44,132 nt of DNA, taken from the IMG/VR virus record IMGVR_UViG_3300037493_001428, positions 1-44,132 of that record; one strand, written 5' to 3'. A program made the position numbers and the translations under genes. Below, one piece after another: positions 7,712 through 42,563 of the stretch; position 1 is the first letter of the stretch; every line of letters starts with the position of its first letter. The notes under the pieces are model-generated. The model was not told the origin of the DNA, ran no database searches, and saw only the letters and a program-made list of their open reading frames with translations. Origin of the DNA: a virus.

Positions 7712-7713
7712 AT

Positions 7714-9441: not shown

Positions 9442-9445
9442 AATT

Positions 9446-25100: not shown

Positions 25101-28100
25101 TAAGAGAGCAAGCTATTCAAGCACGTAATGAAGTTATCTTAGAACTATATGATGAGAGTGTTCAACGTATAGAAGATATAAACAAAGAGCTTGATAAAAC
25201 TCAAAACTCAATTGAGAGTGTTGAAAAACAATTAGCAGAAGAAGTTGCAAAGATACCTAGCACTAAGAAAGGTGTTCCTAGCAAAAGAGTTGCTAAAGCT
25301 CTTAGACAAACTATTGATGCATTAGGAAAAAGTCTTGAGAGTCTTAGAACTATAGAAGCTGATTTACAATCTGAAAGAGAAACTGTAGAAGCTAGTCTTC
25401 CATACATTCAATCTTTCATTGATGAATTAACTGAGGCTCCTGAAGATAACAATGATCTTATTGCAAAACTAAAAGGTGATGTTTCTATATTAAAAGATTT
25501 AGCTAAGATTACTACTGAGTCTATTGAGAAGATTGGTGAGTTGTACAAAACAGCTGAGAGTTTATTACAAGATGCTCTTGAAGAATTGAATGACTTTATC
25601 AAAGAGCTTAAAGAGAAGAATCCTAACATGCCTATTTTTATAGAAGACTTACAGGCTAATGTAGAAAGATTTTTAGGAGAGCAAGGAGCTGAACAATATA
25701 TACAAGATAGATTAGGATTTACTAATCAAGTGAGAGAGTTTGAAGATCAGATAACTGATCTTGAGAACTATCTAGAACTTCCAGGTCTTACAAAGAATGC
25801 AGATAAACTTAGACAAAGTCTCTCAGAGTTAAAAGAAGGACTACAAGCATTCAGAGGAGAGCAAGCTGCTAAAGAAGCAATTATTGAGAAGTTTGAAGCA
25901 TACATTGAGAAAGAGAAACAAAAGAAAGAAGAGGAAGAAAAGGTTGCTAAGAATAAAAAGATTCAATCAGAACTCTTAGGAACAGCAGATTCCAATGCTA
26001 TTCAGAACGAGAAGTCTGATGGTACATTTGAAAGTGATGATAAGAAACCTAACAGCATAATTCCTGAAGCAACTATAACTACTGGTGATAAACCTCACGC
26101 TGTTAGATCAAATGCTTTTGGAGCAAAGATGAATTCATTTGAGAATAGAGATGAAGTTCGTGGTGTACACATCACTTCTAAAAATGAAGATGATCTTATT
26201 CCAGGACTTACAGATCATTTAAGAAAAGATGATGATGATGTAGTAGATCAAGAGATTGATGGAGATAAAATCATTGCATTGGTGATGGTTGATAGCGAAG
26301 GTAATCTTCTCGATGTCAATGGTAAAAAGATTGAACCAATACGAGAAGGTGAAACTAAAGAACAATATGATCAAAGAGTTTTAGACACAGCCATCTATCA
26401 AGTTATGCCATTGGAGAAACTTCAATGGGGTCCTAAGTATGGAAATAAATCTATGTTTAGAGAAGGAACTTCTGAACAATACAAAGATGAAGTTCGTAAG
26501 AAATATGCAGCTTGGAGAAATGAAACATTAGAGCAATCTAATGTTGGTCCTCTTCATACAGTTGATGCATCTTTTGGTAGAGGGGAAATGGTACAGATAG
26601 AAGATGAGAAAGGTAATTTGAAAAATGATTACACTGCTAAAACATCTGTACAAAGTGCTGGGCTTATATCAGAAGAAGATCTTGCAACCACTCCTTTAAT
26701 TCACATTCCTAAAACAAATGCCACTGCTGCCAAGAAAACCACGTCATTTAAAAATGCACTTGGTCAAGTTTTCTTGGAGTTATCAAATGGATTTGTAAAA
26801 CTTAGAAACAGACAACATAATGAGAAAGAAGCTAAGGTGATTTTTGATTCATTAGTGATGCTTTCTAAATACATGATGGATAAATCAAAAGGTCTTAAGA
26901 GTGATGAGGCAGTACGTCTTCTTACATTCTTGAAGTCTTCTGTATATTGGGGTATTCCTGAGACACAACAAAAGGTTAGAAAAGCTGCAGGATACAATAG
27001 TATATTCTTTGAAAGAGATGCTGACACTGGAAGAATGATGTTGAACCTTTCTGGTAAAGGAATGGATTTTGTATTTACACCATCAGGTCTTTTGGAGAAC
27101 GAGGATACTATCCTTGGTATGTTAGAAGGAATGTACAAAAACGTAAACTCCTACATGACACAAAACCTAAATGAGTCATACGAAGAAATAACAGGTATTG
27201 GTCCTGATGGAGAAGTTAAATCTAACATATGGCCTAACTACCAAACATACTTACTTTCAAATAAGAATGCTAATGGTTCAGAGAGAGCAGCTGATGAAAT
27301 CCCTGTTACAACATTACTCAGACCTTTAGAAGGAGAGAATGATGTTAATAGAAAGAACATCTATTTCTTTACAACAGATAATGCAGATACATTTGCTACA
27401 ACTGTTTCTCCAGAGAAAGCTGCACCAGCTGTAATCACTCCAGGAATGCCAAAAGCAGCACCTGCTCCTGCTGCTGTTAAAGATGGTAAACAAGTTTTAA
27501 TTGATAATATACAAGCTAGAAAAAAAGCAGTACTTGCTAATGCAAAAACTGAAGAAGAGAAAGCTAAAATTAATGAGGACACTAATCAACTTTTAGAGAT
27601 TATAAACAATGCAAAAGTTGGAATCCCTGGACAATTTGTATTAGATGGTGAAACACTTAATATTCAGATTGGTAATACAGGAAACATGATTGTGTTTACA
27701 GCTGAATCAGGAATCACTGCAGAGAACTATAACGATAAGATTAAAATCAAACCTGCACTTGGTGATGTTATGAATATTGTTGAGATAGTGAAGAAACAAC
27801 TTAACATAGATCAAGCTGGAGCAGTTGATAACATAAAGAAAAGTTTAGCAACTGTAGTTGCTCAACAAGAAGCAGCTCCTGTAGTTGCTCCTGCACCTTC
27901 TCAAGAAGAGTTTGATGAATATGAACCATATGTAGAACCAGCGTTTGAAGAAGGTGTACAAGGTGGAATTGATCAAGCTAGTCAGAATGCAGGTAAGCCT
28001 ATTAGCAATTCAGTTAAGTCAATTATAAATTCAAAAAGAAAACCTAGTTCTAAAAAAGCTAGACGTGAAGTAATTGTACAAGATTTAAACAAATTCAAAA

Positions 28101-31100
28101 AAGAAGATTGGAACAAAGTGGAAAGATGGATTAAAGCTGTCCTTCCTAATATTCCTGTGTATAGAGTTAAGAATGTAATCCAAGCTACTAATGGAAAACA
28201 AGCTTGGGGTATGTTCCACAATGGTGCTGTTTACATTTATGAAAATGCACAAGTGGGAACAGCGTACCACGAGGTATTCCATGCTATATGGAGAATGTTC
28301 ACTGACACTAAAGAACAGGAAGCAATCTACAATGAATTTAAAAATAGAAGTGGTAAGTTCTTTGACAGAACTTCTGGTCAAACAATCAATTATGCTGAGG
28401 CAACAATTGATCAAATGGAAGAAGCTCTTGCTGAGGAATTCAGAGACTACGTACATGAAGGAAAGAAACCAGGTAAACCAAGCGATGGTAGACCTTTCAT
28501 TCTTAAAATGTTCTCTGATCTTGTAAACTTCATTAAAAAATTATTCTTAGGTAAAGAATCTGCTTCCTTAGTAGAGGAATTGTTCAAGAACATAAATCAA
28601 GGATCATACAAAGCAAGCATGCCATTCTCAAAAGAACTTGGGTATGCATCAAAAGGAATCATTGACATTGATGATATCTCAGGAGATGATGAGAGTGCGT
28701 TCAGTCTTGTTGAGATGGGAGACATTCAAAGAAATGAAATCCTTCAAGAGATGACTTATCAAACGTTGTTACAACTGATTGATAGTGATCAAGACTTGTT
28801 TGATATTCCTAACATCAAAAGATCTACAATCTATGAAGGACTTTATGGAAAGATCCAAAACATGATTGCAGAAGGAATAGACATTGCTTCAGAATTAATG
28901 ACTGAGCCTGAATATCAAACTCCAGAATTACAAAAACAATTACAAGACGAGATTGCTAACATTACACAATTGATGCAACAAGTTGAAGATAGTTGGGAAA
29001 GTATTATGGATAGACATCAAGAATACTTGAGAGGATATTCAATTACATTTGACGAGAATGATGAACTTGCATTGAATGATGATGAGAAAAGTAAAGAAGA
29101 TCCTTTTGGAGATTCAACTAAAATAGATCATTTCAAAAAGGCAAACGCTGCAATTAAGTTATTATTGTCAACTGTTCCTATGTTAGATGAAAATGGAGAC
29201 ATGAGAGTATCTTCAGTGGGTGGAGCAATCCTTATGCCAGTTAGTCAAACATATATTAGTGTAATGAACAACGTTCATAATTCTAATAACATTGAAGACA
29301 TGTTAGAGAAGTTACGTCAAATGGCAGTGTATGATCAAACATATGCTGTACTATATGATCGTATTACTAAATCATCATATAAACTTGAAGGATTAGATCT
29401 TAGCAAAGTTAAAACTGTACATGGTGCAAAACTTATTGATGCTTTCTTTAATACATTCAAGAAACAAAATCCTGATGTTAAGAATGTATTCATTCTTAGC
29501 AATGGAGAAATTGTTGTAGGAGAAGCTAATCTTTCTAGTGCAGCTTCCCAATTGAGAGCTGAGTATATAAATCAAATCATTACAAAAGCTAAAGAAGGAA
29601 AAGGTTTCTTTAAATATAATACCACTAAACAAGTTTATGAAGTTAATTCTGATAAACTTAAAAAATATCAAGTAGGTGATGCTATGCAAATGCTATCTTT
29701 CTTAAAAGAACTTGGTGTAGATTTTACAGGAAGACAATTCACAAAATTAAACGATGTCCAAGCTTCTATATTTAGAGATGCTGTATCTGGTATTAGATCA
29801 AGTATAGCTAATGCTCAAGAAATTAAAAACTTCTCAAGCAAAACTTTGGACATGGAGAAACGTTTGTTTCAACTTGGTTTATTAAAAGCTTCTATAGACA
29901 ATCCTCAGTTTGACAGTACATTCTTTAATGTGTCTGGAGAACGTACACAATCATTTGTTGGAACTAATGCTGCAAGTAACTTATTTACATTCCTTAGCAA
30001 CCTAACTGCTTTTACAAAAGATCAATTAGCTGGAACTAACTTTGCTTATTTAGGAACTGATTCTTTTGTAGAAGGTTCTTCTTTATTGAAAAGAAAATAT
30101 ACAGCTGATGGAAAAATTATTTCAGGTTCAGAAGATTTATTAACTGTAGGATATGTAGGAGGTATTGTAAATGAAACCAATGGTAAAACTAAACCATCAT
30201 CAAAACTAGATTATAAAAATCGTCTTGTACAAGAATTAAATCTTAACTTGAAAGGTTGGTATCTCAATCTTGTTCCTGGAGATGCATCTTTGGAATGGAT
30301 GATTAAAATGGGTAACCCAATTTCTGCAGTTAGTCTTACTAGAGGATTTGGAGAAGTACATGAGTTATTCAAAGGATATTTTCTTTCTGAATTAAAACTA
30401 GCTAGAGAAGATCGTCCTATTGCAAATGTAAAAGGAAGAAGTACCAATGATATGCGATTCTTCAAGTCTATTCTTGGAGAGGTATTACATACTGAGATAA
30501 TTAGTTCTAGTGAGTTAGTTGAAGAAGTTTATGCACAATATGAAAAGAAAATCAATACTGCATTAGACAAGTTTATTGAAACTCAAAAAAATAAATTTGT
30601 TAATACGTTAGTAGAATATGGTATTGTAAAACCAGAAGGATATGGTTATACATTAGAAAACCTTGATCTTCCTAAAGGAATGATTGAGGCTGAGTTCAAT
30701 AGACACATGAACATGCTTACAGTTAATTTCTTTGTGGCAAACATTGAGATGCATAAGTTGCTATACTCAGATCCTTATCAATATTCTGATGAGTTGAAAC
30801 GTATCAAAAACTTTAACTCATCTGGACAACCCCTTATGAATAGTTCACCAAAAATGAATAAACTTTATAACACTGTGTGGAATAAAGGATACAAAAGAGG
30901 TGACATAGGATATACAAACTTTACACAAGAGCATTTCAAAACAGCTACACATGCTGACGTTAATGGTATTGTAGATCTTCCAAACTATGATAACTATAAA
31001 GAGACTGATGGTGCTGGTATGATTTCATTCAAAGCACATCGTCAGTTTAGAATTAGATCTTCTAATTGGAATTCTAATGAAGAAGCACAATATAAATATG

Positions 31101-34100
31101 ATGTAGCTTGGGAAAAAGTTGATAAAGGAATTAAATTAAATCCTGGTGAACAAGAGATATATGATCTTGGTAATCCTGAAGTTAAGAGTGCATACACTCC
31201 TTCTAAACCTATTGCTCGTGGAAACAAAGCAAATGGTAATAACTACAATGATGTTGTATTAGATAAGTTCGCTCTCTATCCTGTTTCATATAGAGTGATG
31301 AAACAAATCAACCCAACTTCGAACATGGTTAAACTTTATAATAAGATGCAAAAAGAAAAGATCGATTATATTGTATTTGAAAGTTCTAGAAAAGTTGGAG
31401 TGGATAAAGCTCATGCAACATATAATGCAGAAGATTCTAGTTTCAATGAAACTAAATATGCTAAACGTACAATTACAAACGTACCATTCTCAGTGTTATA
31501 CGTACAGGCAGAAGTTCCTTCTAAAGATATAGATGTGGTTACACGAGGTTCTCAGGTAACTAAACTTATCACCATGGACTTCTTGGATGCTGGTGTACCT
31601 ATTGACTTTGAAATAAAAAATAGTAGTGGGGAAATAGATACAAATTTCACCAACAGATATGAAGCTTGGTTTAGATTATCTGAAGAACAGAAGAAAGAAC
31701 AATCTGATGTATATAAAGAAATTAAAAACAATGAAGACTTATTAGTTGCATTGATAAAGAATGGTTACAACAACCTTCTTAAAACTTTAGGTATTTCAAA
31801 TGTAAATGGTGAGTTTAAAATTATAAATTTCAATAAATCTGCTACAACCTTACGTAACGAGATTCTAAAAAGAGAAGTTAATGATAACATTAGTGATGCT
31901 TTAAAATCTTTCTTAGAAGGTAAAGCTATTCTTGAAGCTACTCCTGCATATCAACAAGTTAGAAATATTCTTTATTCTATTGCTGATAGAGAAGTTGTTT
32001 CTTCTAAGATGCCTGGTGGTATGAAAGTACAGATTCCTTCTACATTGTTAGAGTCTGTTCGTGCAAAAGAAGTTGAAGTTAATGGTAAGAAAGGACTTGC
32101 TTCTGATGTTCTTAATTTCTATGAGAAAGATGGCAAACGTGTATGTGAAATCATGGTTGGTAGATGGTTCAAGTCAGATTTATCTGATGATGAATTATTA
32201 GATTTATGGTATAAAAAAGATAAAAAAGGTAATAGAACAGAAGAATTAACAGAAGAAGGAGAAAAGATTTTGTCAGGACTTGCATATCGTATTCCTACAC
32301 AGAAACAAAACTCTATTGATAGTTATGTTATTAAGCAATTCCTTCCAAAAGAATTTGGAGACTCTGTTGTTATTCCTGCTGCACTTGTTGCTAAAGCTGG
32401 ATCTGACTTTGATATTGATAAGTTGTCCATTTATTTCAAGAATGTAAAAATTGGAAAAGATGGATTACCAAAATATATTGAATTCCAAGACAATAGTAAT
32501 TCAACTGTAGAAGAACGTTATGTAAAATATGTTTCTGAGAATACACCAGACTACAAAGACATTGTAAAAGACTTTAGAGAATCTGAAGAGTTTGCTACAA
32601 AGAATAAAAAAGTTGATAGTGCATTTGAAACTGTTGGTAATGAAAGACAGAAGTTAGGTGAGGTCAAAACAGAAATAGATGATGCATATGAGATTGGCTA
32701 TGAATCATTTAAACAACTTCCATTAGGAGTGAAACAAGTGTTTTGGGAAGTAGAGAGAGATTTAAGGGAAGAAGATATAGATGGGTTACAAAAGAATCTT
32801 TTCTATGCCAGTATTGCTGAAAAATTATTATCAGAAGTAAGTGGTAAGGAAACTGTTACACTTGAACAAATCATTAAATCTAAAAATGGTGAAACCAAAA
32901 CTGAGAAAGTTACAGTACCTGTTGAAGAGATTGTTCCACATTTAGAAGCAATGTTAGAAAACTATAAAGAGATGAGTGCTCTTTATGGTATATCTAATGA
33001 ACAATTTCAAAAAATTACAAGCAGTTTAGCAAATGCTAAGACTATAAAAGAAATACTAAACGATAGATATAAACTTGAAGTGGCCAAAGTTGTTGCTGAG
33101 TTTACAAACTTAGACAGCTTAGAAAAATTTGGTCAGAGAAAAATGCAAGACCAGAATACCAGAAAAGCGTTAGAGAATGCATATACACAATCTTCTCAAA
33201 ACCTTGTATCTCATCCTAAGAACTACGACAGACTTATTCAACCTAACTCTGCAGAGCAATTAAAAGGATTAGCTAAGTTTGTTGCTGAGAAAACTGCTGG
33301 ACAATCTTTTGATTATACAGATGTTGGTAACATGCTTGATAGAACATTCATGTCTAAATTAAGACATGCGTTTGTTAGTGGTAAGTATGCAATTGGTATT
33401 GCTGCTGTAAACCAAACTAACCACTCATTGAATCAACGTCAACCTATCTTTATTGACATAACAAAAATCAAAGACCTACCTGAATCAGATAGATATTGGT
33501 TAGGTAATGGAAGAGTTACATTTGAAGCATTCAACAAACTTGCAGTTGGTGGATATATCTCTCCAATATTCTCTATGGCTAAGAATGCTGAGAGAAGTGA
33601 AGAGTTTCCTGAAGGTCAAGATATCTCTGATATCCTTGCACAGTTTATTGATGGATATGTGGATATCTCTAAAGGTCCATGGATCATGGAACTTGGAGCC
33701 ACTTCTAATGTTGCTTCTACATGGATGACATTAGTTAAACTTGGTGTGCCTATTGAGACAGTTACTTACTTCATGAATCAACCAATTATTCGTGACTACT
33801 TAAAATCAGTTGAAACTGCTGGATATTCATATTTATTCATTGATGATTTTGTTAGTGAATCAATGAAAAAATATGCACCAAAAGATCAAAAGAGAACACC
33901 TCAAGAATGGAAGGATGCTAAAGAATCATTCAAAGTCCCATCGAAAGATGTTTTGAAAAATCTTGTTGGTGAGGATGTTTCTAAAATGGATAAACAACAA
34001 TTAGAAACACAGCAATTGATGTTATTGGAATTTTTGAAATATGCTAAGATGGCAGAGCAAATGTTCCAAGTAACACAGGGATCTAACTTTGATACAGCAA

Positions 34101-35686
34101 CCTTGAATGATCCATCATTGGTATTCAAGAAAATAAAAATGCTTGAGAAAGCACAAAAAACAATCATCTCTTCTGTTGATGAAAATGGTAAAACTATACC
34201 TGGTGTAGATGCATTATTAAAGAACTCGTTCTTAGGTGAGATGGGAGAGTCTATCATTAATATGAGAGAAGCTCTTGCTCAGATATTAATGTCTGACAGA
34301 CCAGCAATTAGAAAAGTTATTGAACAAGTGCTAACTCCATACCTTGAAACTCCTGATAGAGAGTTTGTAAAAATTGCACAGAAAACTGTTAATGATCTTT
34401 TTGATTGGGCTATATTCACACATGATGGATACGCTGATTTAATAAAATCAGAGTTGATTAAAGATGGTGGCACTGCAAAACAAATCTATGAGTTTGCAAA
34501 AGAAGTTAAAGATGATCCAAATCATCCTTTACATGATAACTTTGTAATTAACATATTAGAATACAAACCTTCATCAAGACCTGGAGATAGTGTAAACAAT
34601 TTAAAAATCAAAGGTGTAGATAACAAAACCTTTGATCAGAATAACATCATTGGTGCATTCAGACAAATAAGAACATACATTGCTAATCAAGAAGCATTAG
34701 GTAATAAAAAAGATTCAGCTATATATAAAGGACTAGTTAATGTGGCAATTTTACAATCAGGACTTTCTAACTCTCCTATATCATATACATCTTTACTTCC
34801 TTATGAAGATTTTGCAGAGGTTTATAATCCAACTCTTTCTAAGTTAGAGAACTTTGGGAACTTAGATTCATTTGTTAACTTAGGAGTGTTTGCAAGAAAC
34901 AACTGGAATAGTGATACGTATGTTCCTAGTTCTGTTGCAAGATGGCTTTCTATTACAGATTACATGGGTAATAGAAACTCTATCTATAATCCATCTATGT
35001 ACTTTCTTCCTGAAGCTGTAAAAGATGCTGTTTCAAATGGAGAGATTCCACAAGTTGTAACACAGTCAGTAAGAAACTCAGGATCAAGTTCTGATTATAT
35101 AACATTCTCTTGGGAATTACAAACTGAGATTTTGACAGCTGATGAACTAAAAGCTGCACAAGATAAAGGTGATGTAATGGCTGCAGTATTTGCTAAAAAG
35201 AATGCTCTACGTAAAGCAGGTGATTATTCATTTATACAAAGAGGATTATTTCAAAAAGTACGTGATAGTTTTGGAACACCATTAACTACAGAGGATAGAA
35301 AAGGTAAAGAATACTTTGTATATAAAGCAATCAATGCTTGGGGTGATTCATTTAGAGCTAACGAGTTCTACGATGTAGATAAACAATCAGTGATTGAAAA
35401 TGGAATGATTAAAGTAAATCCTGCAAGTGATAACTTAATCATTGATATATTCAGAGGAACAAGACCTATGGTTGGAGCAGTCACTGCAACAACACCTATA
35501 GAAAGTGTTTCTTTGAAAGGTGCATTTAATGGATTAAATGAATTCACTCTAGAACAAAAATCACAAATTTTATCTAACTTTGCTATCAAGCATGGACTTA
35601 CTTCAGAGCAAGCATTGAAAGACATTAATGCAGCACTTAAAAAGGATCGAGCTACTGCAATCGAACAATTAAAAAAATGTTACTAA
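22193..35686 (+). CDS. Giant 4,497-residue virion protein: ejection region, zincin metalloprotease and DxDxD RNA polymerase
   Basis: This single frame joins several activities. Residues about 90-510 contain Gly/Ala-rich hydrophobic stretches (about 109-129, 190-226, 480-500) typical of ejected membrane-active proteins. An SH3-like beta segment spans about 800-863 and a long coiled coil about 943-1250. A zincin metalloprotease lies at about 1990-2120, with H2026EVFH2030 and E2077 or E2081 as third ligand. The RNA-polymerase region centres on D3405FDID3409 within KAGSDFDIDKLSIYF, the Mg-binding loop matching DFDGD of cellular beta-prime subunits, preceded by RIPTQKQNS and followed at about 3729 by GKYAIGIAA. 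The crAss-like phage phi14:2 gp66, a virion RNA polymerase of about 2,200 residues, is the family reference; this protein is about twice as long. It would be injected to transcribe early genes. Proteolytic release of the polymerase is an inference. Confidence 0.85.
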   Translation: MENEETMLPISPLTENFLPTNRILPMESQDVAPYRGVSLERNTGGPADNFMPPMAKGDSQLPDMVTTGQLYGARRYPVYDANKTENEFAYGQTWMDQARNGILKGLNLTATTVVGGFATVGGLIASPFTGRLSTIWDNPLMNELDKWNEKVDNEYLPNYYTDAEKNAEWYSRDNWWTPNFLFDKVIKNSGFAVGAMISGNIANAAFKGLGALAGALASEGAIAAEASQSFKLFSPLLKNTARAFSNGKNVEAAQLLKSEITSIADATQRTSKMAEIAKQGNLFAKINDAGRRTAIATYSSAGEASFEALQTSKEYRNNLIEKYKAEHGGEEPKDAQLEYINEQADVVGKTSFLGNLAILSITENAQLNKLLGSSYAADKQAANSLFGEVDDVLLKADKYVAKTPTTKFGKLYDKVTGVGKYFFDPKEGAQEIAQYALQVGTKNYWNKAHETDDADAWVDGALYGMFGKDEAGEGVGAFVSKEGMEGGFIGALTGGGMQAFSNYGQGKAKRENTNKFLEQLNDAPTFKEAFKDRIDSANRGVVLQQQQQSAVIQGDKLEAKDLNTDLMHNYLAPRIKYGRFDMVMDDLAELKQMGMSTEGLSELINQGVANTNDTVQSFQTRLSNFENVAKNTQEIFKFNDLAYSGEVLKDKDGVPILKDGKPQRKYTSAAIMQMNYAAAKVADYDLRIPEVSMGPISAGVLVQDIINQELTDPKSKALETEVAKIKSSKEVKAKETAQQLTDVVEMSMRRKQYLDEYNDIIAAPQKYADAREEFIKNLTASGQVPGQAPETITIKTKLGDRDIEIGTDYFLGKVVEYDKQGRPVNRAPIVRILGEEDGKIKMQDVKTGEITLVSPDAIEDYKLGKVSDATQKDIWINNNWNTVFQHRGIKNKKGLPIEGRIENHPKQGMMYFVYTDDRGRVQKIPVKNSDFVAKEGYKRGMIAPKQKLVATEQQTLEKIFSAKERAAQSLREQAIQARNEVILELYDESVQRIEDINKELDKTQNSIESVEKQLAEEVAKIPSTKKGVPSKRVAKALRQTIDALGKSLESLRTIEADLQSERETVEASLPYIQSFIDELTEAPEDNNDLIAKLKGDVSILKDLAKITTESIEKIGELYKTAESLLQDALEELNDFIKELKEKNPNMPIFIEDLQANVERFLGEQGAEQYIQDRLGFTNQVREFEDQITDLENYLELPGLTKNADKLRQSLSELKEGLQAFRGEQAAKEAIIEKFEAYIEKEKQKKEEEEKVAKNKKIQSELLGTADSNAIQNEKSDGTFESDDKKPNSIIPEATITTGDKPHAVRSNAFGAKMNSFENRDEVRGVHITSKNEDDLIPGLTDHLRKDDDDVVDQEIDGDKIIALVMVDSEGNLLDVNGKKIEPIREGETKEQYDQRVLDTAIYQVMPLEKLQWGPKYGNKSMFREGTSEQYKDEVRKKYAAWRNETLEQSNVGPLHTVDASFGRGEMVQIEDEKGNLKNDYTAKTSVQSAGLISEEDLATTPLIHIPKTNATAAKKTTSFKNALGQVFLELSNGFVKLRNRQHNEKEAKVIFDSLVMLSKYMMDKSKGLKSDEAVRLLTFLKSSVYWGIPETQQKVRKAAGYNSIFFERDADTGRMMLNLSGKGMDFVFTPSGLLENEDTILGMLEGMYKNVNSYMTQNLNESYEEITGIGPDGEVKSNIWPNYQTYLLSNKNANGSERAADEIPVTTLLRPLEGENDVNRKNIYFFTTDNADTFATTVSPEKAAPAVITPGMPKAAPAPAAVKDGKQVLIDNIQARKKAVLANAKTEEEKAKINEDTNQLLEIINNAKVGIPGQFVLDGETLNIQIGNTGNMIVFTAESGITAENYNDKIKIKPALGDVMNIVEIVKKQLNIDQAGAVDNIKKSLATVVAQQEAAPVVAPAPSQEEFDEYEPYVEPAFEEGVQGGIDQASQNAGKPISNSVKSIINSKRKPSSKKARREVIVQDLNKFKKEDWNKVERWIKAVLPNIPVYRVKNVIQATNGKQAWGMFHNGAVYIYENAQVGTAYHEVFHAIWRMFTDTKEQEAIYNEFKNRSGKFFDRTSGQTINYAEATIDQMEEALAEEFRDYVHEGKKPGKPSDGRPFILKMFSDLVNFIKKLFLGKESASLVEELFKNINQGSYKASMPFSKELGYASKGIIDIDDISGDDESAFSLVEMGDIQRNEILQEMTYQTLLQLIDSDQDLFDIPNIKRSTIYEGLYGKIQNMIAEGIDIASELMTEPEYQTPELQKQLQDEIANITQLMQQVEDSWESIMDRHQEYLRGYSITFDENDELALNDDEKSKEDPFGDSTKIDHFKKANAAIKLLLSTVPMLDENGDMRVSSVGGAILMPVSQTYISVMNNVHNSNNIEDMLEKLRQMAVYDQTYAVLYDRITKSSYKLEGLDLSKVKTVHGAKLIDAFFNTFKKQNPDVKNVFILSNGEIVVGEANLSSAASQLRAEYINQIITKAKEGKGFFKYNTTKQVYEVNSDKLKKYQVGDAMQMLSFLKELGVDFTGRQFTKLNDVQASIFRDAVSGIRSSIANAQEIKNFSSKTLDMEKRLFQLGLLKASIDNPQFDSTFFNVSGERTQSFVGTNAASNLFTFLSNLTAFTKDQLAGTNFAYLGTDSFVEGSSLLKRKYTADGKIISGSEDLLTVGYVGGIVNETNGKTKPSSKLDYKNRLVQELNLNLKGWYLNLVPGDASLEWMIKMGNPISAVSLTRGFGEVHELFKGYFLSELKLAREDRPIANVKGRSTNDMRFFKSILGEVLHTEIISSSELVEEVYAQYEKKINTALDKFIETQKNKFVNTLVEYGIVKPEGYGYTLENLDLPKGMIEAEFNRHMNMLTVNFFVANIEMHKLLYSDPYQYSDELKRIKNFNSSGQPLMNSSPKMNKLYNTVWNKGYKRGDIGYTNFTQEHFKTATHADVNGIVDLPNYDNYKETDGAGMISFKAHRQFRIRSSNWNSNEEAQYKYDVAWEKVDKGIKLNPGEQEIYDLGNPEVKSAYTPSKPIARGNKANGNNYNDVVLDKFALYPVSYRVMKQINPTSNMVKLYNKMQKEKIDYIVFESSRKVGVDKAHATYNAEDSSFNETKYAKRTITNVPFSVLYVQAEVPSKDIDVVTRGSQVTKLITMDFLDAGVPIDFEIKNSSGEIDTNFTNRYEAWFRLSEEQKKEQSDVYKEIKNNEDLLVALIKNGYNNLLKTLGISNVNGEFKIINFNKSATTLRNEILKREVNDNISDALKSFLEGKAILEATPAYQQVRNILYSIADREVVSSKMPGGMKVQIPSTLLESVRAKEVEVNGKKGLASDVLNFYEKDGKRVCEIMVGRWFKSDLSDDELLDLWYKKDKKGNRTEELTEEGEKILSGLAYRIPTQKQNSIDSYVIKQFLPKEFGDSVVIPAALVAKAGSDFDIDKLSIYFKNVKIGKDGLPKYIEFQDNSNSTVEERYVKYVSENTPDYKDIVKDFRESEEFATKNKKVDSAFETVGNERQKLGEVKTEIDDAYEIGYESFKQLPLGVKQVFWEVERDLREEDIDGLQKNLFYASIAEKLLSEVSGKETVTLEQIIKSKNGETKTEKVTVPVEEIVPHLEAMLENYKEMSALYGISNEQFQKITSSLANAKTIKEILNDRYKLEVAKVVAEFTNLDSLEKFGQRKMQDQNTRKALENAYTQSSQNLVSHPKNYDRLIQPNSAEQLKGLAKFVAEKTAGQSFDYTDVGNMLDRTFMSKLRHAFVSGKYAIGIAAVNQTNHSLNQRQPIFIDITKIKDLPESDRYWLGNGRVTFEAFNKLAVGGYISPIFSMAKNAERSEEFPEGQDISDILAQFIDGYVDISKGPWIMELGATSNVASTWMTLVKLGVPIETVTYFMNQPIIRDYLKSVETAGYSYLFIDDFVSESMKKYAPKDQKRTPQEWKDAKESFKVPSKDVLKNLVGEDVSKMDKQQLETQQLMLLEFLKYAKMAEQMFQVTQGSNFDTATLNDPSLVFKKIKMLEKAQKTIISSVDENGKTIPGVDALLKNSFLGEMGESIINMREALAQILMSDRPAIRKVIEQVLTPYLETPDREFVKIAQKTVNDLFDWAIFTHDGYADLIKSELIKDGGTAKQIYEFAKEVKDDPNHPLHDNFVINILEYKPSSRPGDSVNNLKIKGVDNKTFDQNNIIGAFRQIRTYIANQEALGNKKDSAIYKGLVNVAILQSGLSNSPISYTSLLPYEDFAEVYNPTLSKLENFGNLDSFVNLGVFARNNWNSDTYVPSSVARWLSITDYMGNRNSIYNPSMYFLPEAVKDAVSNGEIPQVVTQSVRNSGSSSDYITFSWELQTEILTADELKAAQDKGDVMAAVFAKKNALRKAGDYSFIQRGLFQKVRDSFGTPLTTEDRKGKEYFVYKAINAWGDSFRANEFYDVDKQSVIENGMIKVNPASDNLIIDIFRGTRPMVGAVTATTPIESVSLKGAFNGLNEFTLEQKSQILSNFAIKHGLTSEQALKDINAALKKDRATAIEQLKKCY
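28160..28560 (+). other. Intact zincin metalloprotease domain inside the giant RNA-polymerase protein
   Basis: Residues about 1990-2122. GTAYHEVFHAIW supplies HExxH (2026-2030), and MEEALAEEFRDYV about 46-51 residues later supplies the acidic third ligand. It is followed by an amphipathic hydrophobic helix (FSDLVNFIKKLFLG). All residues expected for zinc-dependent catalysis are present. Confidence 0.78.
32390..32440 (+). other. RNA polymerase catalytic loop DFDID
   Basis: D3405, D3407 and D3409 form the DxDxD magnesium site of two-barrel (DPBB) RNA polymerases. Flanking AKAG and KLSIYF strands fit the double-psi beta-barrel loop. Confidence 0.85.
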
Positions 35687-35687
35687 T

Positions 35688-38600
35688 ATGAGTTGTGTTA
35701 ATCCAAATAATCCAGAGTTTCAAGAATTAGTTAGAAAGACAGGAAACTACTTGCTTGCTGAGATAGAGTTTACAAAAAATTCTCCTATCATTCAGAGCAA
35801 TGGAAAGTTATTAAATCTTCCTGAAGAAGCAAAGCAACGCATATATGAGAACTATGTAAACCTAATGGACAGAAAACGTGAAGGTAAAGCTATCACGTAC
35901 AAGTCATTTATTAAAAGCGTTTATAATAACTTACAAGTTTTTAAATCAAAAGACACATATATTTTTGGTGAGTGGGATAGAAACAATAATGTATTCAAAG
36001 GAAGATTCATGTCTTCCCCAAACATTAGAGAGATGTATGGTGCATTAGATGAGTTAATGGACATGGTTAACTTTGCTGCATCTGTTCCAGAAGATATTGG
36101 ACGTATGCTTGAAAAGAAAGGTATGTACAAACTTAATGTTGGTAAAGAATATGACTTCAAAGGAGAGCAAATGATTAAAAACATTTACTTCTCAAATGAA
36201 GAATTAGTTAGAAAAATATTTAAGAAAGAGGTGAGCGACATCACTGAACAAGATGTTAGAAAATACGACAAATTTTTTAACTATAAGTCTATACTTTATA
36301 AATTGGAAAAGCAATTTAATAAAGGTAAGTTTGATGAAATCTACAATACATTAAAAGAGTTAGGGATTTATGATTACAATGCTTACAAGATTCTTAACAA
36401 ATTCAAACAGTTAGATAAAAACTTTACTCCTGAAGAACTAGAAAAGTTTAAAGCAGAGAATGCAGAATTATATTTCACTCCACAAGAGAAACAGAAATAT
36501 AAAATCTATAAAGAATACATGCAGATCATTAATAGTGTGAAAGATCAAATCGCATCTAATAGTGCATCTAATATGGTTAATATAGATAGAACAGATATAT
36601 TAAACAATCCAAAGATTTATAGTCAACTTGACACTGATTTAAATAAAACTTTAGCCACCTACTTATCAAAGTTTGGTATTAAGACAGAAGTTTTAAAAGA
36701 CATGCAAGATAAATTAGGAATTGATTCATTTGCACATGTTGATATTCTTAATAAGATATTATATACATCTGAAACAAATCAAGGAGAATACCCTCAACAA
36801 GCAGGAAAGTTAATTGCGTACATGATGCAACATAATCCTCTTGTAACAGAGATTATGGCAAACATGAAACGATCTTCAATGTTTGGAAGTAAACTTAGTA
36901 AGGATGATTTACTAGATGTAATTGGTGATTTAATTGCAGAACAACTATACAATAAAACAAACACTCAAGTTCCACAATCAATTCTTGATAAAATTGGAAT
37001 GTTGATTAGACAGTTCTTTCAATTCCTAACAGATGTAAGACTTTCTAGAATTAATAAGAACGTTGGTATAATTGCTGAGAATGTATTGATACAAAATCAA
37101 TCGTTGATTACTTTCTCTCCATTTAAACCTGGAGCATCTGGTAAAGAAGTTGTAAGAGTTAAGTTTCAAGAAGCATTAGATAAAGATCGTTTTGCTACAG
37201 CAATTGTAGATAGAATGGCTGATAAGTTTATTCTTGGAGGAAGTATTTCTTTTTCTGAACAAGGTCCTGTTTTGAGACCTGATGAAAACCAAGTTCATGA
37301 TTTGGATTGGGTTTCTCCATATACAAGAAACACCACTGTAAAAGAATTTGAAAATCTATATCCTGAAGGACAAAGAGTTTATATTAGAGAGATAAACGAT
37401 AAGGATACTGGAGAATGGACTGACACATGGTTAGTGTGTGAAGATGGACATACTATACAGAACTTGGTACTATCAAATGATGGCAAGAATAAAGTTCTTG
37501 CTTATGACATTGTTAGTGATGAGACTGGTGAAGTGGTTAGTAAATACATACCAAAACCAGAATCTCATTCAGGAGATATAGAAGCTAAACCTATTGATAT
37601 TTTCTCAAGTGATGGACAACCTAAAGAAAAATATGGCACTCAAGATTTTACTACCACTTCAGGAACTGTAGTTAAACTTGGAAACTGGAGAGCGTCATTT
37701 GAGGCTAAACTTAGATATGGTCGTTTAAAAGATATTTGGGATTATAATAGATTCATTCCTGATGAAAACATCTATCAAGGAGAGCCTGCAGAAACTAACT
37801 TCCAATTGGAAGGCATGCCTATGTCTGCTGCTAGTGAGCAAACTCTTGCAAAAGTCAAAGAGCTTATTGCTAAAATGGGAGTTAGTATTGAGTCACTTTT
37901 AGAATATGCAAAAAAATCTAAACTGAATCTTAAAGATGTAAATGCTGTGGCTGACATGGTCCATGGTATAATTGCTGTAGCTGAAGGAAAAGAAAATGTA
38001 TCTCTTACAGAAGAGATGGTGCACATTGCCACTGCTATATTACAAGCAAAGAATCCTAAGATGATTACAGAGATGATTGCTAAGATTGATCGTTTCAAAA
38101 TATACAATCAGACACTAAAAGCATATAGAGATAATCCTGACTATCAACTTCCTAATGGTAAACCAGACATTCGTAAGATTAAGAAAGAAGCTGTCGATAA
38201 GTTGATAGCTGAATTAATTGTTAATGGTGGGCAAGATATTGCTCAATACCCTGAACTATTAGAAGAGGAGAATCAAAACTTAGTTCAACGTTGGTGGAAT
38301 GCCATCATGGACTGGTTCAGAGGAATGTACAAATCTACAAACGTTAGTATATTCCAACAGACTGCTGACATTATTATGAATGATCAATTAGAAGGAGACT
38401 TCACAGACATTCAGAATAAACAAATCTACTATCAATTAAGTGCTCCACAAGAAGCTATACAAAAAGAAGTATTAGATAGACAATCTAAAATAAAGAAAGT
38501 AGAGAGTGGTGAGAAAGTTGATCCAATGTTTATGGACACTGAAGAAGCTAGTAACTGGTATGAAATTCAAAACGAAGAAGGTGTTTTTAAAAGAATTGAG

Positions 38601-41600
38601 AAAAGGGTTACTGATCGTGTGAAAGCTTGGTATCGTCAGAGATTTGGAAACAAAACTTTTACTAAAGAAGAACAAGCATTTAATGAATTCAAGAGAAAAT
38701 TTGGAGTTAAAGCTCATGGTTGGTTTGAAGACATTCATGGTAGATATTTTAATTCAGATGGTACAAGAAAAATTTCAATTGATAAAAGAAAGATTAAACT
38801 TTCTCAAACAGAAGAAGACATGTACAATCAATTGGAAAAATACTTCTCAGATCTTGTAGCTAAGTTCTCTGAGAATGGTAAAACTCCTTTGGTGTTTTCT
38901 GAGATTATGTTATATGATCCTAAAGAAAAGGAAGCAGGAACAATTGACCTTATGATTGTTGATGAGAATGGTAAGGTTAATATATTTGATTGGAAGTTCA
39001 TGAGTATGGGAGCTAATCAAGAAGATGTTGCTTGGTATAAACAAGGAGCATATAACATTCAGCTTGGTCGATACAAAGACATGCTTCGTAATTCATATGG
39101 AGTGAAAGAGTTTGGAATGAACAGAGCTATTCCAATCATCATGGACATTAAATCTCCATTCAGTATGAATCCTAATGCTGATCCAATTGTTGCAGGAATA
39201 GCAATTGGTTCTGTAAATCCTTCTGAGATTAAAGAGCTAAGACTTATTCCTGTATCAGAAGAAACTGAGTCTACTGGATTTGATACATTAGATACACTTA
39301 TAAATGATTTGAATGCTGTATATAGACAAATTAGTAAAACAAAAGTTACTGATGATGAAGAGAAGGAGTTCAAATCAAAAAGATTAAATAGCATCAAGAA
39401 AGCAATACGTGCTGCACAAGGATCATTAAACATTGCTCCACTGGTTGAAGTTATTCGTGAGATGAGAATTAGTGGTCAGATGATTATTGATGACTATACA
39501 ACAACTTATGCTAATCGTCCTGCTACAGCAGATGATCTTAATAATAAAGAACTTTCTGACTTCTCAGATGAGATGAGAGAGTACTTAGCAATTGCTGAGA
39601 TTTTTGGTAGAGTGGATGATCGTATTAGAGATCTTATTTATAATTCTGAAATGGAAACAGCAGCTGAAACTGCTGAACAAAAAGAAGCTGTTAAGCTTAG
39701 AAAAGATCTTCTTGATAGTATCAGAGATGAAACTAGTAAGATTAGAGAACATAAAGATGCTATTAAAGATGTCTCTGGTAAATTTGCTGACAAGTTCATT
39801 GGACAGAAAAATCTTGTAACAGGACTTCTTAATCCTGAAGCAGTGCTAAAAGGTTTAGGAGCTTTATTCAATGGTGTATCTGATCTTCCATTAGCGTCAC
39901 TTAAGATTTTATACAAGCTTGTGAACAATGCTAAAGGTATGGCATCTAGAATTGCAAATGGTGAAGTTGAAGAACTTATGGCAATTAGAAAACGTCTTGT
40001 TGAAAGAGGTGGTAACACAAGAGATTTAATAAAACAAATCTATCAACGAGACGATAAAGACAATTGGGTGAATAAACTTATTTATAAATACAATAAGGAT
40101 TTTTACACTGCTGTTGATCAGAATGCTGAAAGTGGATACAGAAGCAAAGCTTGGTTAAAAGACAACATTGATATAGAAGCTTATAAAAAAGAAGCTTTGC
40201 AAAAAATGAATGAGAACATTAGATACTACGAAAGAAGATATGCTGATGATTCTAATTTATTGGATCAAATGATCTATGAAGAAAAGTTGAAATGGGATAT
40301 AGATGATGAAAACTTTAATGGTTGGAATAACTACCTTATAAAAAGACATCCATTAGAAAAATGGCAATCTCAAGAATATATAAATCTGTCTAAAGACAAA
40401 GACTTATTAGATCTTTACGAATTCATTTCTAACATAAATCAAAAAGCCAAATCTGTTGGATACATTCAGAATGCTGTAGCTTCTACATTCTTACCATTTG
40501 TTAGAAAATCAATGGCTGAGAGTCTTGCTTGGGATGCTAGTCTTTCTGTATTAACTTCTATGGGAGATAGTCTTTCAATGAGAGCTGAAGATGTTGGATA
40601 TGGATCTATTAATGAGCTCACAAAAGAACTTGAACATGGTATTCCTAAATACTACACACATGACTTTAGTAGAGCTGAGGATGGTACAAATGACTACAGC
40701 GATGTGAGTGAAGACTTGTTCAAAAATATGATTATGTACATTAATCATATGGAGAAATACTCAATGTTAACTGAGATTGAAGGACAATTACAATTGGTAA
40801 AAACAATTGAGGAAGGTAAAAAACACTTGAACACTAGTCAAACAGGTGACGTTATTATTAAGAATGGTAAACCAGATGAGATAGCAGGAAACAAGGAGAA
40901 CACTCAAATGTTTGATGATTTCTTACGTGGTTTATTATACGAACAAAAATATCCTCTTTCTGATTCTGACACTCCTTTAAACTTGAATGTTAAAAATGCT
41001 GTTAAAAAAGCAATTAATAAGGTTGCAGGTAGAGAAGTTTATCCCATTGATGAGAATCCAAGTGCTACGTCATTAGTTAAAAGTATTGATGCAATGAACA
41101 GAGCTTTCCAATTAAAAACTCTTGGATTTGAAGTGTTATCTGGAGCTGTGAATGCCTTTGGTGCTAATATACAAGTTGCTACACAAGCTGGTAATTATTT
41201 TAAAGCTAGAGAAGTTTTAGCCAATGAACGTAAATTAATTGGAAACAAGTTTAAAAATAACGAGGAAAGAGATATGTTTGTTCAATTAGTTGATGCTTTC
41301 ATGCCTTTGAAAGATGATCCTACATATGATAAATTAAAAAAAGCAGGATTATCAAAAATAACTCAACAAAATTTTTCTGATTGGTTATGGGTATTTATGA
41401 GAAATCCTGAACAACACATGGAAAAATCTATATTCTTAACCTTGTTAGATAATACAATGGTTGAGGATGGTAAGCTTGTAAACATTCGTGAGTTTGTTAA
41501 AAACAAATATAAAGATAGATATGAGCAAGGTGCAGCTAAAGCAAGAGAGATTGATAGCAAGATTGATTCAGAAATTGCAGAACTTAAGAAAACAAGATCA

Positions 41601-42563
41601 ATTAGTGTAACTAAAAAATTAATTGATGGTAAACTTGAGATTCCTGGTTTTGATATGAAGAATGTCAATGAACTTCAAAGACTTACAAACTTAACTAGAC
41701 GTATTGCAAGAAATGCAACAGGTGGTATGGCAGACTCTGATATGAACAGAGCTTCTATGAACATCTGGTTGAGGTCAATGATGGTGTTTAAAGGTTGGAT
41801 TCCTAAACTTTTGAAAACACGTTTCTCTGAACTAGCAGAAGTTTCAGATGACTTCTCTACAACAATTGATGAAGATGGTATGACTATTGGTCAGAAATAT
41901 GATATAGGTCGTATTAGATTATTTGGACATGTATTAGGTGATGGTATAATCCAAGGTGCTGCAAACATTCGTAACATTATGGTTCTTAATGATGCAGGGC
42001 TTGCACGTTTGGATAAGATGTACGAAGACTTTGCTGCAAGTTATGAGAAACGAACTGGTAAAGTTCTTCAAATGGATAAAGCTGATTTTATTGACTTGAT
42101 GAGAAACAATTTACGTAATCAGGTAAAAGAGTTAGCAATATTGATGAGTTTATTTGCAATGTACTTATCATTAGGATTTATGGCTCCAGATGATGATGAA
42201 GACAAAGCAACTAAAAACTTCTACAGATTCTCTCTAAGAACTGTTGACAAGTTTGTTAATGAGCTTTCGTTCTTCTACAATCCTGTTGAGTTCCAAAAAC
42301 TATTGAGTGGAAGTGCGTTTCCTGCATTAGGAATATTTTCAGATATTGAAAGATTTACAAGTCATTTCTTTATGGAAACTACTGGTGTAGACCTTTCAGA
42401 AATGGATCGTGGTTCAGAAGAAGTTAGAAAAAAAGCACAACCAATTAAATATTTTAGTAAGATGTTACCTATTACAAAATCAATGATCACATACATGGCA
42501 ATCTTTGATTCTGATTTTGCAAAAGAATATGACGTAACAATACAAAAAGAAAGTATGAGGTAA
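35688..42563 (+). CDS. Giant 2,291-residue virion protein with RecB-type nuclease and two degenerate zincin domains
   Basis: It starts MSCVNPNNPEF, 1 base after the preceding stop, and was probably made to be ejected with the polymerase protein. Domains seen: a first zincin-like domain at about 345-450 with the HExxH position read as Q370QAGK374; a second at about 745-885 with E775EMVH779; both keep the downstream acidic helix (E418, E842) and the following hydrophobic helix. A PD-(D/E)XK nuclease of RecB type at about 990-1165 shows H1010, E1072, GTIDL with D1087, D1101-W-K1103 and Q1125LGRY1129. The C-terminal 900 residues are helical, with LGFEVLSGAVNAFGANIQ at about 1815 and a probable membrane segment at about 2147-2168 (LAILMSLFAMYLSLGFM). 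The nuclease could degrade host DNA or process phage DNA ends at entry; which one cannot be told from sequence. Confidence 0.75.
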   Translation: MSCVNPNNPEFQELVRKTGNYLLAEIEFTKNSPIIQSNGKLLNLPEEAKQRIYENYVNLMDRKREGKAITYKSFIKSVYNNLQVFKSKDTYIFGEWDRNNNVFKGRFMSSPNIREMYGALDELMDMVNFAASVPEDIGRMLEKKGMYKLNVGKEYDFKGEQMIKNIYFSNEELVRKIFKKEVSDITEQDVRKYDKFFNYKSILYKLEKQFNKGKFDEIYNTLKELGIYDYNAYKILNKFKQLDKNFTPEELEKFKAENAELYFTPQEKQKYKIYKEYMQIINSVKDQIASNSASNMVNIDRTDILNNPKIYSQLDTDLNKTLATYLSKFGIKTEVLKDMQDKLGIDSFAHVDILNKILYTSETNQGEYPQQAGKLIAYMMQHNPLVTEIMANMKRSSMFGSKLSKDDLLDVIGDLIAEQLYNKTNTQVPQSILDKIGMLIRQFFQFLTDVRLSRINKNVGIIAENVLIQNQSLITFSPFKPGASGKEVVRVKFQEALDKDRFATAIVDRMADKFILGGSISFSEQGPVLRPDENQVHDLDWVSPYTRNTTVKEFENLYPEGQRVYIREINDKDTGEWTDTWLVCEDGHTIQNLVLSNDGKNKVLAYDIVSDETGEVVSKYIPKPESHSGDIEAKPIDIFSSDGQPKEKYGTQDFTTTSGTVVKLGNWRASFEAKLRYGRLKDIWDYNRFIPDENIYQGEPAETNFQLEGMPMSAASEQTLAKVKELIAKMGVSIESLLEYAKKSKLNLKDVNAVADMVHGIIAVAEGKENVSLTEEMVHIATAILQAKNPKMITEMIAKIDRFKIYNQTLKAYRDNPDYQLPNGKPDIRKIKKEAVDKLIAELIVNGGQDIAQYPELLEEENQNLVQRWWNAIMDWFRGMYKSTNVSIFQQTADIIMNDQLEGDFTDIQNKQIYYQLSAPQEAIQKEVLDRQSKIKKVESGEKVDPMFMDTEEASNWYEIQNEEGVFKRIEKRVTDRVKAWYRQRFGNKTFTKEEQAFNEFKRKFGVKAHGWFEDIHGRYFNSDGTRKISIDKRKIKLSQTEEDMYNQLEKYFSDLVAKFSENGKTPLVFSEIMLYDPKEKEAGTIDLMIVDENGKVNIFDWKFMSMGANQEDVAWYKQGAYNIQLGRYKDMLRNSYGVKEFGMNRAIPIIMDIKSPFSMNPNADPIVAGIAIGSVNPSEIKELRLIPVSEETESTGFDTLDTLINDLNAVYRQISKTKVTDDEEKEFKSKRLNSIKKAIRAAQGSLNIAPLVEVIREMRISGQMIIDDYTTTYANRPATADDLNNKELSDFSDEMREYLAIAEIFGRVDDRIRDLIYNSEMETAAETAEQKEAVKLRKDLLDSIRDETSKIREHKDAIKDVSGKFADKFIGQKNLVTGLLNPEAVLKGLGALFNGVSDLPLASLKILYKLVNNAKGMASRIANGEVEELMAIRKRLVERGGNTRDLIKQIYQRDDKDNWVNKLIYKYNKDFYTAVDQNAESGYRSKAWLKDNIDIEAYKKEALQKMNENIRYYERRYADDSNLLDQMIYEEKLKWDIDDENFNGWNNYLIKRHPLEKWQSQEYINLSKDKDLLDLYEFISNINQKAKSVGYIQNAVASTFLPFVRKSMAESLAWDASLSVLTSMGDSLSMRAEDVGYGSINELTKELEHGIPKYYTHDFSRAEDGTNDYSDVSEDLFKNMIMYINHMEKYSMLTEIEGQLQLVKTIEEGKKHLNTSQTGDVIIKNGKPDEIAGNKENTQMFDDFLRGLLYEQKYPLSDSDTPLNLNVKNAVKKAINKVAGREVYPIDENPSATSLVKSIDAMNRAFQLKTLGFEVLSGAVNAFGANIQVATQAGNYFKAREVLANERKLIGNKFKNNEERDMFVQLVDAFMPLKDDPTYDKLKKAGLSKITQQNFSDWLWVFMRNPEQHMEKSIFLTLLDNTMVEDGKLVNIREFVKNKYKDRYEQGAAKAREIDSKIDSEIAELKKTRSISVTKKLIDGKLEIPGFDMKNVNELQRLTNLTRRIARNATGGMADSDMNRASMNIWLRSMMVFKGWIPKLLKTRFSELAEVSDDFSTTIDEDGMTIGQKYDIGRIRLFGHVLGDGIIQGAANIRNIMVLNDAGLARLDKMYEDFAASYEKRTGKVLQMDKADFIDLMRNNLRNQVKELAILMSLFAMYLSLGFMAPDDDEDKATKNFYRFSLRTVDKFVNELSFFYNPVEFQKLLSGSAFPALGIFSDIERFTSHFFMETTGVDLSEMDRGSEEVRKKAQPIKYFSKMLPITKSMITYMAIFDSDFAKEYDVTIQKESMR
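36700..37060 (+). other. Degenerate zincin domain 1
   Basis: Same layout as the intact domain in the upstream giant protein: strand (ILYTSETNQGEY), helix at the HExxH position (PQQAGKLIAYMM, active residues replaced by Q, Q and K), acidic helix (DVIGDLIAEQL, E418) and hydrophobic helix (IGMLIRQFFQFL). Presumably non-catalytic. Confidence 0.55.
37920..38350 (+). other. Degenerate zincin domain 2
   Basis: VSLTEEMVHIATAIL occupies the HExxH position; the first His is Glu (E775), while the Glu (E776) and second His (H779) remain. The acidic helix (KLIAELIV, E842) and the aromatic hydrophobic helix (RWWNAIMDWFRGMY) follow. Probably inactive, possibly a structural or substrate-binding module. Confidence 0.55.
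38655..39180 (+). other. PD-(D/E)XK nuclease domain (RecB-like)
   Basis: Residues about 990-1165. H1010 in a first helix, E1072 in FSEIML, D1087 in GTIDLM, D1101 and K1103 in FDWKF, then Q1125xxxY1129 give the full RecB/AddB/Cas4-type motif set. Catalytic residues are all present, so activity is expected. Confidence 0.82.

What the first reader, a model, noticed from the sequence alone, without database searches (positions are those of the whole stretch)
36700..38350. Two decayed copies of the same zincin domain in the next protein
Both regions repeat the intact domain's order: strand, helix at the HExxH site, acidic IAE helix, then a hydrophobic aromatic helix. In copy 1 the site reads QQAGK; in copy 2 it reads EEMVH. 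Loss of catalytic residues with retention of fold suggests pseudo-proteases used for assembly, inhibition or recognition of the active protease in the neighbouring protein.
Basis: partly seen in the sequence, partly recalled or inferred. Interest (0 to 1): 0.7.

Follow-up and report, generated by a model that had tools for sequence, protein, structure and literature searches.

The report
Zincin-fold domains with swapped metal ligands
A protein that a crAss-like phage probably injects together with its own RNA polymerase carries two real relatives of a protease fold: one has lost its active site, and the other keeps a conserved but unusual active site in which one metal-binding histidine is always replaced by glutamate.

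Summary
The window is a Crassvirales-like contig. The 4,497-aa protein (P2) carries the phage RNA-polymerase motif plus an HEVFH zincin; the 2,291-aa protein (P1) is a gp49-like, RNA-polymerase-associated cargo protein. Its two segments are homologous to each other (hhalign 96%) and, through profiles and intermediates, to HExxH zincins (95% for copy 2, 55% for copy 1). The AlphaFold2 model of copy 2 is good (pLDDT 84) and its best PDB rows are all zincins; the copy-1 model failed (pLDDT 50).

The interpretation needs splitting. Copy 1 (QQAGK) looks truly dead: all four site residues are gone throughout its clade, although EEAGH/EEVGH versions exist in sister copies. Copy 2 is not decayed: E-E-x-x-H plus the third Glu is nearly invariant in 58 distinct relatives found without using the motif, and present in crAss001 gp49. 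The supposedly intact P2 zincin belongs to a family with Glu for the second His in 57 of 79 phages, His in 22, never anything else, and at least 6 switches. That is how an interchangeable metal ligand behaves. Best reading: a carboxylate-rich, metal-binding zincin variant in injected polymerase cargo, plus one dead docking copy. Function is inferred.

The parts
35688..42563 (+). P1, 2,291-aa gp49-like virion-RNAP-associated cargo protein; in other phages its N part (copy 1) and C part (copy 2 onward) are encoded by separate genes
36609..37112 (+). copy 1: zincin-homologous domain without active-site residues (P1 308-475)
36795..36809 (+). QQAGK, the erased site of copy 1 (P1 370-374)
37791..38462 (+). 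copy 2: zincin-fold domain with conserved EExxH site (P1 702-925)
38010..38024 (+). EEMVH site of copy 2 (P1 775-779)
38187..38189 (+). third conserved Glu of copy 2 (P1 E834, in KKEAVDKLIAE), aligned with the third zinc ligand of HExxH zincins
22193..35686 (+). P2, 4,497-aa protein: zincin plus crAss-type virion RNA polymerase motif
28118..28597 (+). P2 zincin domain, about P2 1976-2135
28268..28282 (+). HEVFH site of P2 (2026-2030); residue 2030 is Glu in most relatives
28421..28423 (+). P2 E2077, third-ligand Glu, invariant in 70 of 70 distinct relatives
32399..32422 (+). GSDFDIDK, catalytic DxDxD motif of the virion RNA polymerase in P2 (crAss001 gp50 has GSDFDVDK)

Best explanation
P1 is the gp49-like, RNA-polymerase-associated cargo protein of a crAss-like phage and holds two zincin-fold domains related to the zincin fused to the RNA polymerase in the adjacent P2. 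SHOWN by sequence: the three domains are homologous; copy 1 has lost every site residue; copy 2 keeps Glu-Glu-x-x-His plus a third Glu nearly without exception; in the P2-type domain the second His interchanges only with Glu, several times over. INFERRED: copy 2 (and most P2-type domains) still binds a metal with one His and two Glu ligands, a site less suited to zinc than to Mn, Fe or a similar ion, with the motif's second Glu kept as general base. It acts after or during injection of the giant cargo proteins, most likely cutting or remodelling the cargo itself, while copy 1 serves as a docking or spacer module. The confidence given is for homology plus a retained, ligand-substituted metal site in copy 2; the role in cargo processing alone I put at about 0.3.
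For: Homology: copy1-copy2 hhalign 96%; copy 2 vs HExxH zincins 82%, 95.4% with the combined HExxH profile, copy 1 55%; first-pass HMMs link copy 1 to L031/L032 first copies (E 7e-24, 3e-18), those to copy 2 (2.5e-14, 1e-12), and HExxH zincins to cr108 EECAH (3.9e-5). Fold: AF2 copy 2 pLDDT 83.6, pTM 0.81, with helix, strands, site helix, third-Glu helix; VIA-align rows at Z 3.3 and above are all zincins (lethal factor Z 6.5, IrrE 3dti Z 6.2 rmsd 3.3, Mtb 6d2s 5.2, ArdC 6sna 4.8, abylysin 3.3), unrelated rows 3.0 or less. Site: in 58 distinct motif-blind relatives E1 57, E2 58, H 57, third Glu 57, with both Glu codons and both His codons used. P2-type: H1, E2 and third Glu 70/70, second His E 50 / H 20, the only strict two-state column of 1,040 with a radical exchange; 11 changes by parsimony, at least 6 forced by well-supported branches. 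Cargo: crAss001 gp47, gp49, gp50 are detected in virions (PMC10172136); gp49 has EEFAH, gp47 HEAFH. Purifying selection on both copies, dN/dS 0.11 and 0.21.
Against: Foldseek against the PDB found nothing significant, and VIA-align Z of 6.5 is modest. Copy 1's own model is poor. A residue can be invariant for structure rather than catalysis. The tree used for counting H/E switches is a quick one. No paper found describes an active EExxH zincin.
Confidence: 0.6

Rival explanations
1. One reading: both copies are dead pseudo-proteases kept only as folded modules for assembly, inhibition or recognition of the active zincin in P2.
For: Copy 1 has lost all site residues yet is conserved (24 invariant columns, 'AGxxIAYMMQ') and under purifying selection. 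H1-to-E is recorded among substituted zincins, regarded as inactive, in PMC3650047. The lethal factor rows include its N-terminal residues 59-259, a known non-catalytic zincin-like domain used for docking (own knowledge).
Against: In copy 2 the site residues are among the most conserved columns, including the general-base Glu (58/58), which a dead fold does not need. P2-type relatives exchange His only with Glu.
Confidence: 0.27
2. Copy 2's EExxH plus Glu is a conserved structural or ligand-binding (non-metal) site: the acidic cluster and His form salt bridges or bind a partner protein or nucleic acid.
For: Three carboxylates and one His can make a polar network; ArdC, a zincin-fold match, is a nucleic-acid-binding antirestriction protein (own knowledge).
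Against: The spacing and positions coincide exactly with the zincin metal site, and the P2-type domain alternates with the canonical HExxH ligand.
Confidence: 0.1
3. The resemblance is chance or fold convergence of helical segments and not homology.
For: Single-sequence copy 1 is not above background; the copy-1 model is poor; Foldseek PDB is silent.
Against: Direct HMM links and controlled profile-profile scores, the intermediates L031/L032, and the zincin-only top rows.
Confidence: 0.03

Closest known systems
Zincin-like metallopeptidase (MPTase) domains of phage polyvalent proteins, including the N4 virion RNAP (Iyer et al. 2017, PMC5512222)
   Same: Zincin-fold domain in a giant phage protein packaged with or fused to a virion RNA polymerase; several copies in one system; helix-strands-site helix-Glu helix order
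   Different: That family is defined by HExxH; copy 2 has EExxH, most P2-type relatives have HExxE, copy 1 has no site. The RNAP here is the crAss DxDxD type, not the T7-like N4 type
crAss001 gp49, gp47 and gp50 virion cargo proteins (Bayfield et al. 2023, PMC10172136)
   Same: gp49 carries the copy-2 domain with EEFAH, gp47 the P2-type zincin with HEAFH, gp50 the RNAP motif
   Different: In the window gp47-like and gp50-like parts are one protein (P2) and copy 1 is added in front of the gp49-like part; no zincin or metallopeptidase annotation of gp49 was found in the papers read
ImmA/IrrE-type and ArdC zincins (PDB 3dti, 6d2s, 6sna)
   Same: Closest compact folds to the copy-2 model (Z 4.8-6.2 over 93-100 residues)
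   Different: These have a canonical site or their own metal; no significant sequence link; copy 2 has Glu for the first His

Membership tests
Zincin superfamily (by fold and descent): copy 2 | Zincin core: helix, mixed sheet, site helix, third-ligand helix | tested here: met
   AF2 model; VIA-align rows with Z 3.3 or more are all zincins; Foldseek PDB not significant
Zincin superfamily (by fold and descent): copy 2 | Sequence relation to HExxH members | tested here: met
   82%, 95.4% with combined profile, control
Canonical zinc metallopeptidase: copy 2 | HExxH | tested here: not met
   EExxH in practically all relatives
Canonical zinc metallopeptidase: copy 2 | General-base Glu and third-ligand Glu | tested here: met
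   E776 58/58, E834 57/58
Zincin superfamily: copy 1 | Sequence relation to zincins | tested here: met
   via copy 2 (96%; first-pass HMM chain); directly to HExxH 55%
Zincin superfamily: copy 1 | Zincin core in a structure model | tested here: inconclusive
   pLDDT 49.7
Canonical zinc metallopeptidase: copy 1 | HExxH or its ligands | tested here: not met
   QQAGK and V in place of the third Glu
Canonical zinc metallopeptidase: P2 domain | HExxH plus third Glu | tested here: met
   HEVFH 2026-2030 and E2077 in the window; but HExxE in 57 of 79 relatives
crAss gp49-like virion cargo | Homology to crAss001 gp49 | tested here: met
   copy-2 HMM hits gp49, domain E 1.2e-11
crAss gp49-like virion cargo | Presence in the virion | not testable with these tools
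   Shown for crAss001 gp49 by mass spectrometry (PMC10172136), not for this phage
Active protease | Peptide-bond cleavage | not testable with these tools
   needs biochemistry

The most novel reading that the evidence does not exclude
Crassvirales virion-polymerase cargo carries a class of zincin-fold metal enzymes whose His ligands are repeatedly and reversibly exchanged for Glu (HExxH to HExxE in the polymerase-linked domain, EExxH in the gp49-linked domain), giving active carboxylate-rich, probably non-zinc sites.
Probability: 0.4. Interest if true: 0.75.

Novelty: new variant of a known kind. Interest (0 to 1): 0.58.

Why it matters
Zincins with changed His ligands are usually written off as dead. 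Here the exchange is always to Glu, is conserved over very divergent phages, and has switched back and forth in the polymerase-linked domain, so whether a Glu-for-His zincin site is alive becomes directly testable in a cultured phage (crAss001). It also gives a first concrete domain assignment for gp49, a virion protein of the most abundant human gut viruses, and a candidate activity for the poorly understood step of injecting and reactivating giant polymerase proteins.

Tried and rejected
Pfam, PHROGs and PDB sequence searches with P1 and P2 gave no usable domain hit. Foldseek of the copy-2 model against the PDB: nothing significant, top rows are phycobiliproteins and globins with TM about 0.15. 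The copy-1 model is too poor for a fold search, so none was run. Single-sequence profile scans of P1 and P2 do not find copy 1 above background, hence the use of profiles. Counting EExxH in loci fetched with a pattern that contained the motif would be circular; the counts quoted come from loci fetched through the P1 C-terminus and through the P2 region next to the zincin. Alignment A4 was also chosen by motif, so its invariance is not quoted as evidence. A second EExxH in crAss001 gp49 at residue 91 (EEIGH) lies in a differently patterned N-terminal region and was not pursued. The idea that copy 2 decayed at random was rejected. A ferritin-like di-iron reading of ExxH was considered and dropped because the strand-helix order and matches are zincin. 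Literature searches for EExxH and HExxE zincins in phages found none in the open-access library; Yutin 2018 and Drobysheva 2021 are not held, so an earlier annotation there cannot be excluded.

Full report
What was checked. The window is one 44,132-base virus record. P1 is the ORF 35688-42563 (2,291 aa), P2 the ORF 22193-35686 (4,497 aa), adjacent and co-directional.

Where it comes from. P1 hits uncultured phage cr108_1, and P2 matches proteins of the same phage. cr108_1's own P2-type zincin in turn matches the crAss001 'putative RNA-polymerase subunit' gp47. P2 contains GSDFDIDK at 3403-3410, matching GSDFDVDK of crAss001 gp50, the DxDxD motif of the crAss virion RNA polymerase (PMC7886860). 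The copy-2 profile hits crAss001 gp49 at domain E 1.2e-11. In crAss001, gp47, gp49 and gp50 were found in virions by mass spectrometry and are thought to be extruded through the tail (PMC10172136). So P2 corresponds to a gp47-like zincin part fused to a gp50-like polymerase part, and P1 to a gp49-like part with an additional N-terminal unit that carries copy 1. In other phages the copy-1 unit and the copy-2 unit are separate genes (L006, L013, cr108_1).

Are the segments related to a zincin? Profiles of copy 1 and copy 2 align at 96% probability over about 130 columns. Iterated searches from either find the other. In first-pass searches the decayed copy-1 profile finds the first copies of L032 and L031 (E 7e-24, 3e-18), which read EEAGH and EEVGH, and the copy-2 profile finds the same two (E 2.5e-14, 1e-12). 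In a sister group of phages with the same layout (L107, L109, L117-L120, L122, L124 and others) the place of copy 2 is taken by a canonical HEFxH or HEYxH zincin. That HExxH profile finds cr108_1's EECAH domain directly (E 3.9e-5), aligns to copy 2 at 82%, and combined with the P2-type zincins at 95.4%, E 1.7e-8, over 175 columns; copy 1 reaches 55% against the same profile. Controls: among profiles of 50 segments of P1 and P2, only the true copies stand out. The AlphaFold2 model of copy 2, made from EExxH sequences only, has pLDDT 83.6 and pTM 0.81 and the order helix, strand, helix, two strands, site helix (residues 68-87, EEMVH at 74-78), third-Glu helix (127-146, Glu 133), aromatic helix. 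Foldseek against the PDB gives nothing significant, but VIA-align of those candidates ranks only zincins at Z 3.3 and above and unrelated proteins at 3.0 or below. Against viral models the best hits are crAss-like proteins, then polyvalent-protein, IrrE-like and similar models. Copy 1 modelled alone is unreliable (pLDDT 49.7).

Is the site decayed? Copy 1: yes. The aligned site is Q, Q, K and V instead of E, E, H and E; relatives read PIAGE, PLAGE, NVAGE, DIAGK and similar, while the neighbouring 'AGxxIAYMMQ' is nearly invariant. These rows form one clade (SH-aLRT 99) next to the EEAGH/EEVGH copies (92), so QQAGK most simply derives from an EExGH ancestor. Copy 2: no. To avoid circularity relatives were fetched through the P1 C-terminus. 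Among 58 distinct domains the first Glu is kept in 57, the second in 58, His in 57 and the third Glu in 57; the single exception is one row lacking the site altogether; both Glu codons and both His codons are used. All cultured or named crAss-like phages examined agree: crAss001 EEFAH, cr108_1 EECAH, cr128_1 and Dulem virus 41 EEFAH. Both copies are under purifying selection (dN/dS 0.11 and 0.21 against the closest relative).

The intact reference is itself variable. Fetching P2 relatives through the region next to the zincin gives 79 loci with the domain: HExxE in 57, HExxH in 22, nothing else at the fifth position. In 70 distinct sequences the first His, the catalytic Glu and the third-ligand Glu are invariant, and of 1,040 aligned columns this is the only strict two-state column with a radical exchange; the others are swaps such as I/V, Y/F, D/E. 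On a tree of the adjacent 421 residues the label changes 11 times by parsimony, at least 6 of them forced by well-supported branches. A position that can be only His or Glu, repeatedly, while every other site residue stays fixed, is best explained as a metal ligand that tolerates either residue.

Mechanism. Shown: homology, motif states, conservation, co-location with the virion polymerase. From established knowledge: in zincins the two His of HExxH and a downstream Glu bind the metal and the motif Glu is the general base; N4 virion polymerase and other phage polyvalent proteins carry zincins proposed to process the polypeptide before or after injection (PMC5512222). Inferred: copy 2 binds a metal through E775, H779 and E834 with E776 as base, and works on the injected cargo; copy 1 is a spacer or docking module. 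Lethal factor, among the fold matches, is a precedent (own knowledge) for one polypeptide with a dead zincin used for docking and a live one.

What is new. Polyvalent-protein zincins and the crAss polymerase cargo are known. What I did not find described is (i) that gp49-type proteins carry a zincin-fold domain, (ii) that its motif is a conserved EExxH, and (iii) the recurrent His/Glu exchange at the second ligand of the polymerase-linked zincin. Two key papers are not in the held library, so (i) may have been noted before. I file it as a new variant of a known kind.

Noticed in passing
28268-28282 and loci L207-L286: Polymerase-linked zincin: second His of HExxH is Glu in 57 of 79 relatives and His in 22 (window included), nothing else; multiple switches on the tree.
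   Followed up: yes
38937-39074: P1 has a PD-(D/E)XK-like nuclease signature (GTIDLMIV...IFDWKF...QLGRY); in crAss001 a similar signature lies in gp47 instead, so domains are shuffled among the cargo proteins.
   Followed up: partly
37296-37745: P1 between the two copies has HDLDWV and GRLKDIWDY, reminiscent of a minimal nucleotidyltransferase-like domain (by eye only).
   Followed up: no
L089 ORF at 5689, residues 316-640: The order of copies is reversed (EExxH copy first) and the dead copy is split by an insert with a P-loop-like APGLGKTEL motif.
   Followed up: no
L288 (Chitinophaga sp. YR573, contig NZ_FOJF01000001.1, 4.83 Mb): An EEAMH copy-2 domain in a cargo-like ORF of over 3,200 codons lies inside a bacterial chromosome contig: possible integrated crAss-like phage.
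   Followed up: partly
10312-16014: 1,900-aa protein with transglycosylase/LysM-like and endolysin-like segments, in the virion-gene block upstream of P2.
   Followed up: no
7702-10312: ORFs 7702-9441 and 9398-10312 overlap; the first matches the same virion-protein families as ORF 2792-7711, suggesting a large virion gene that is split here.
   Followed up: no
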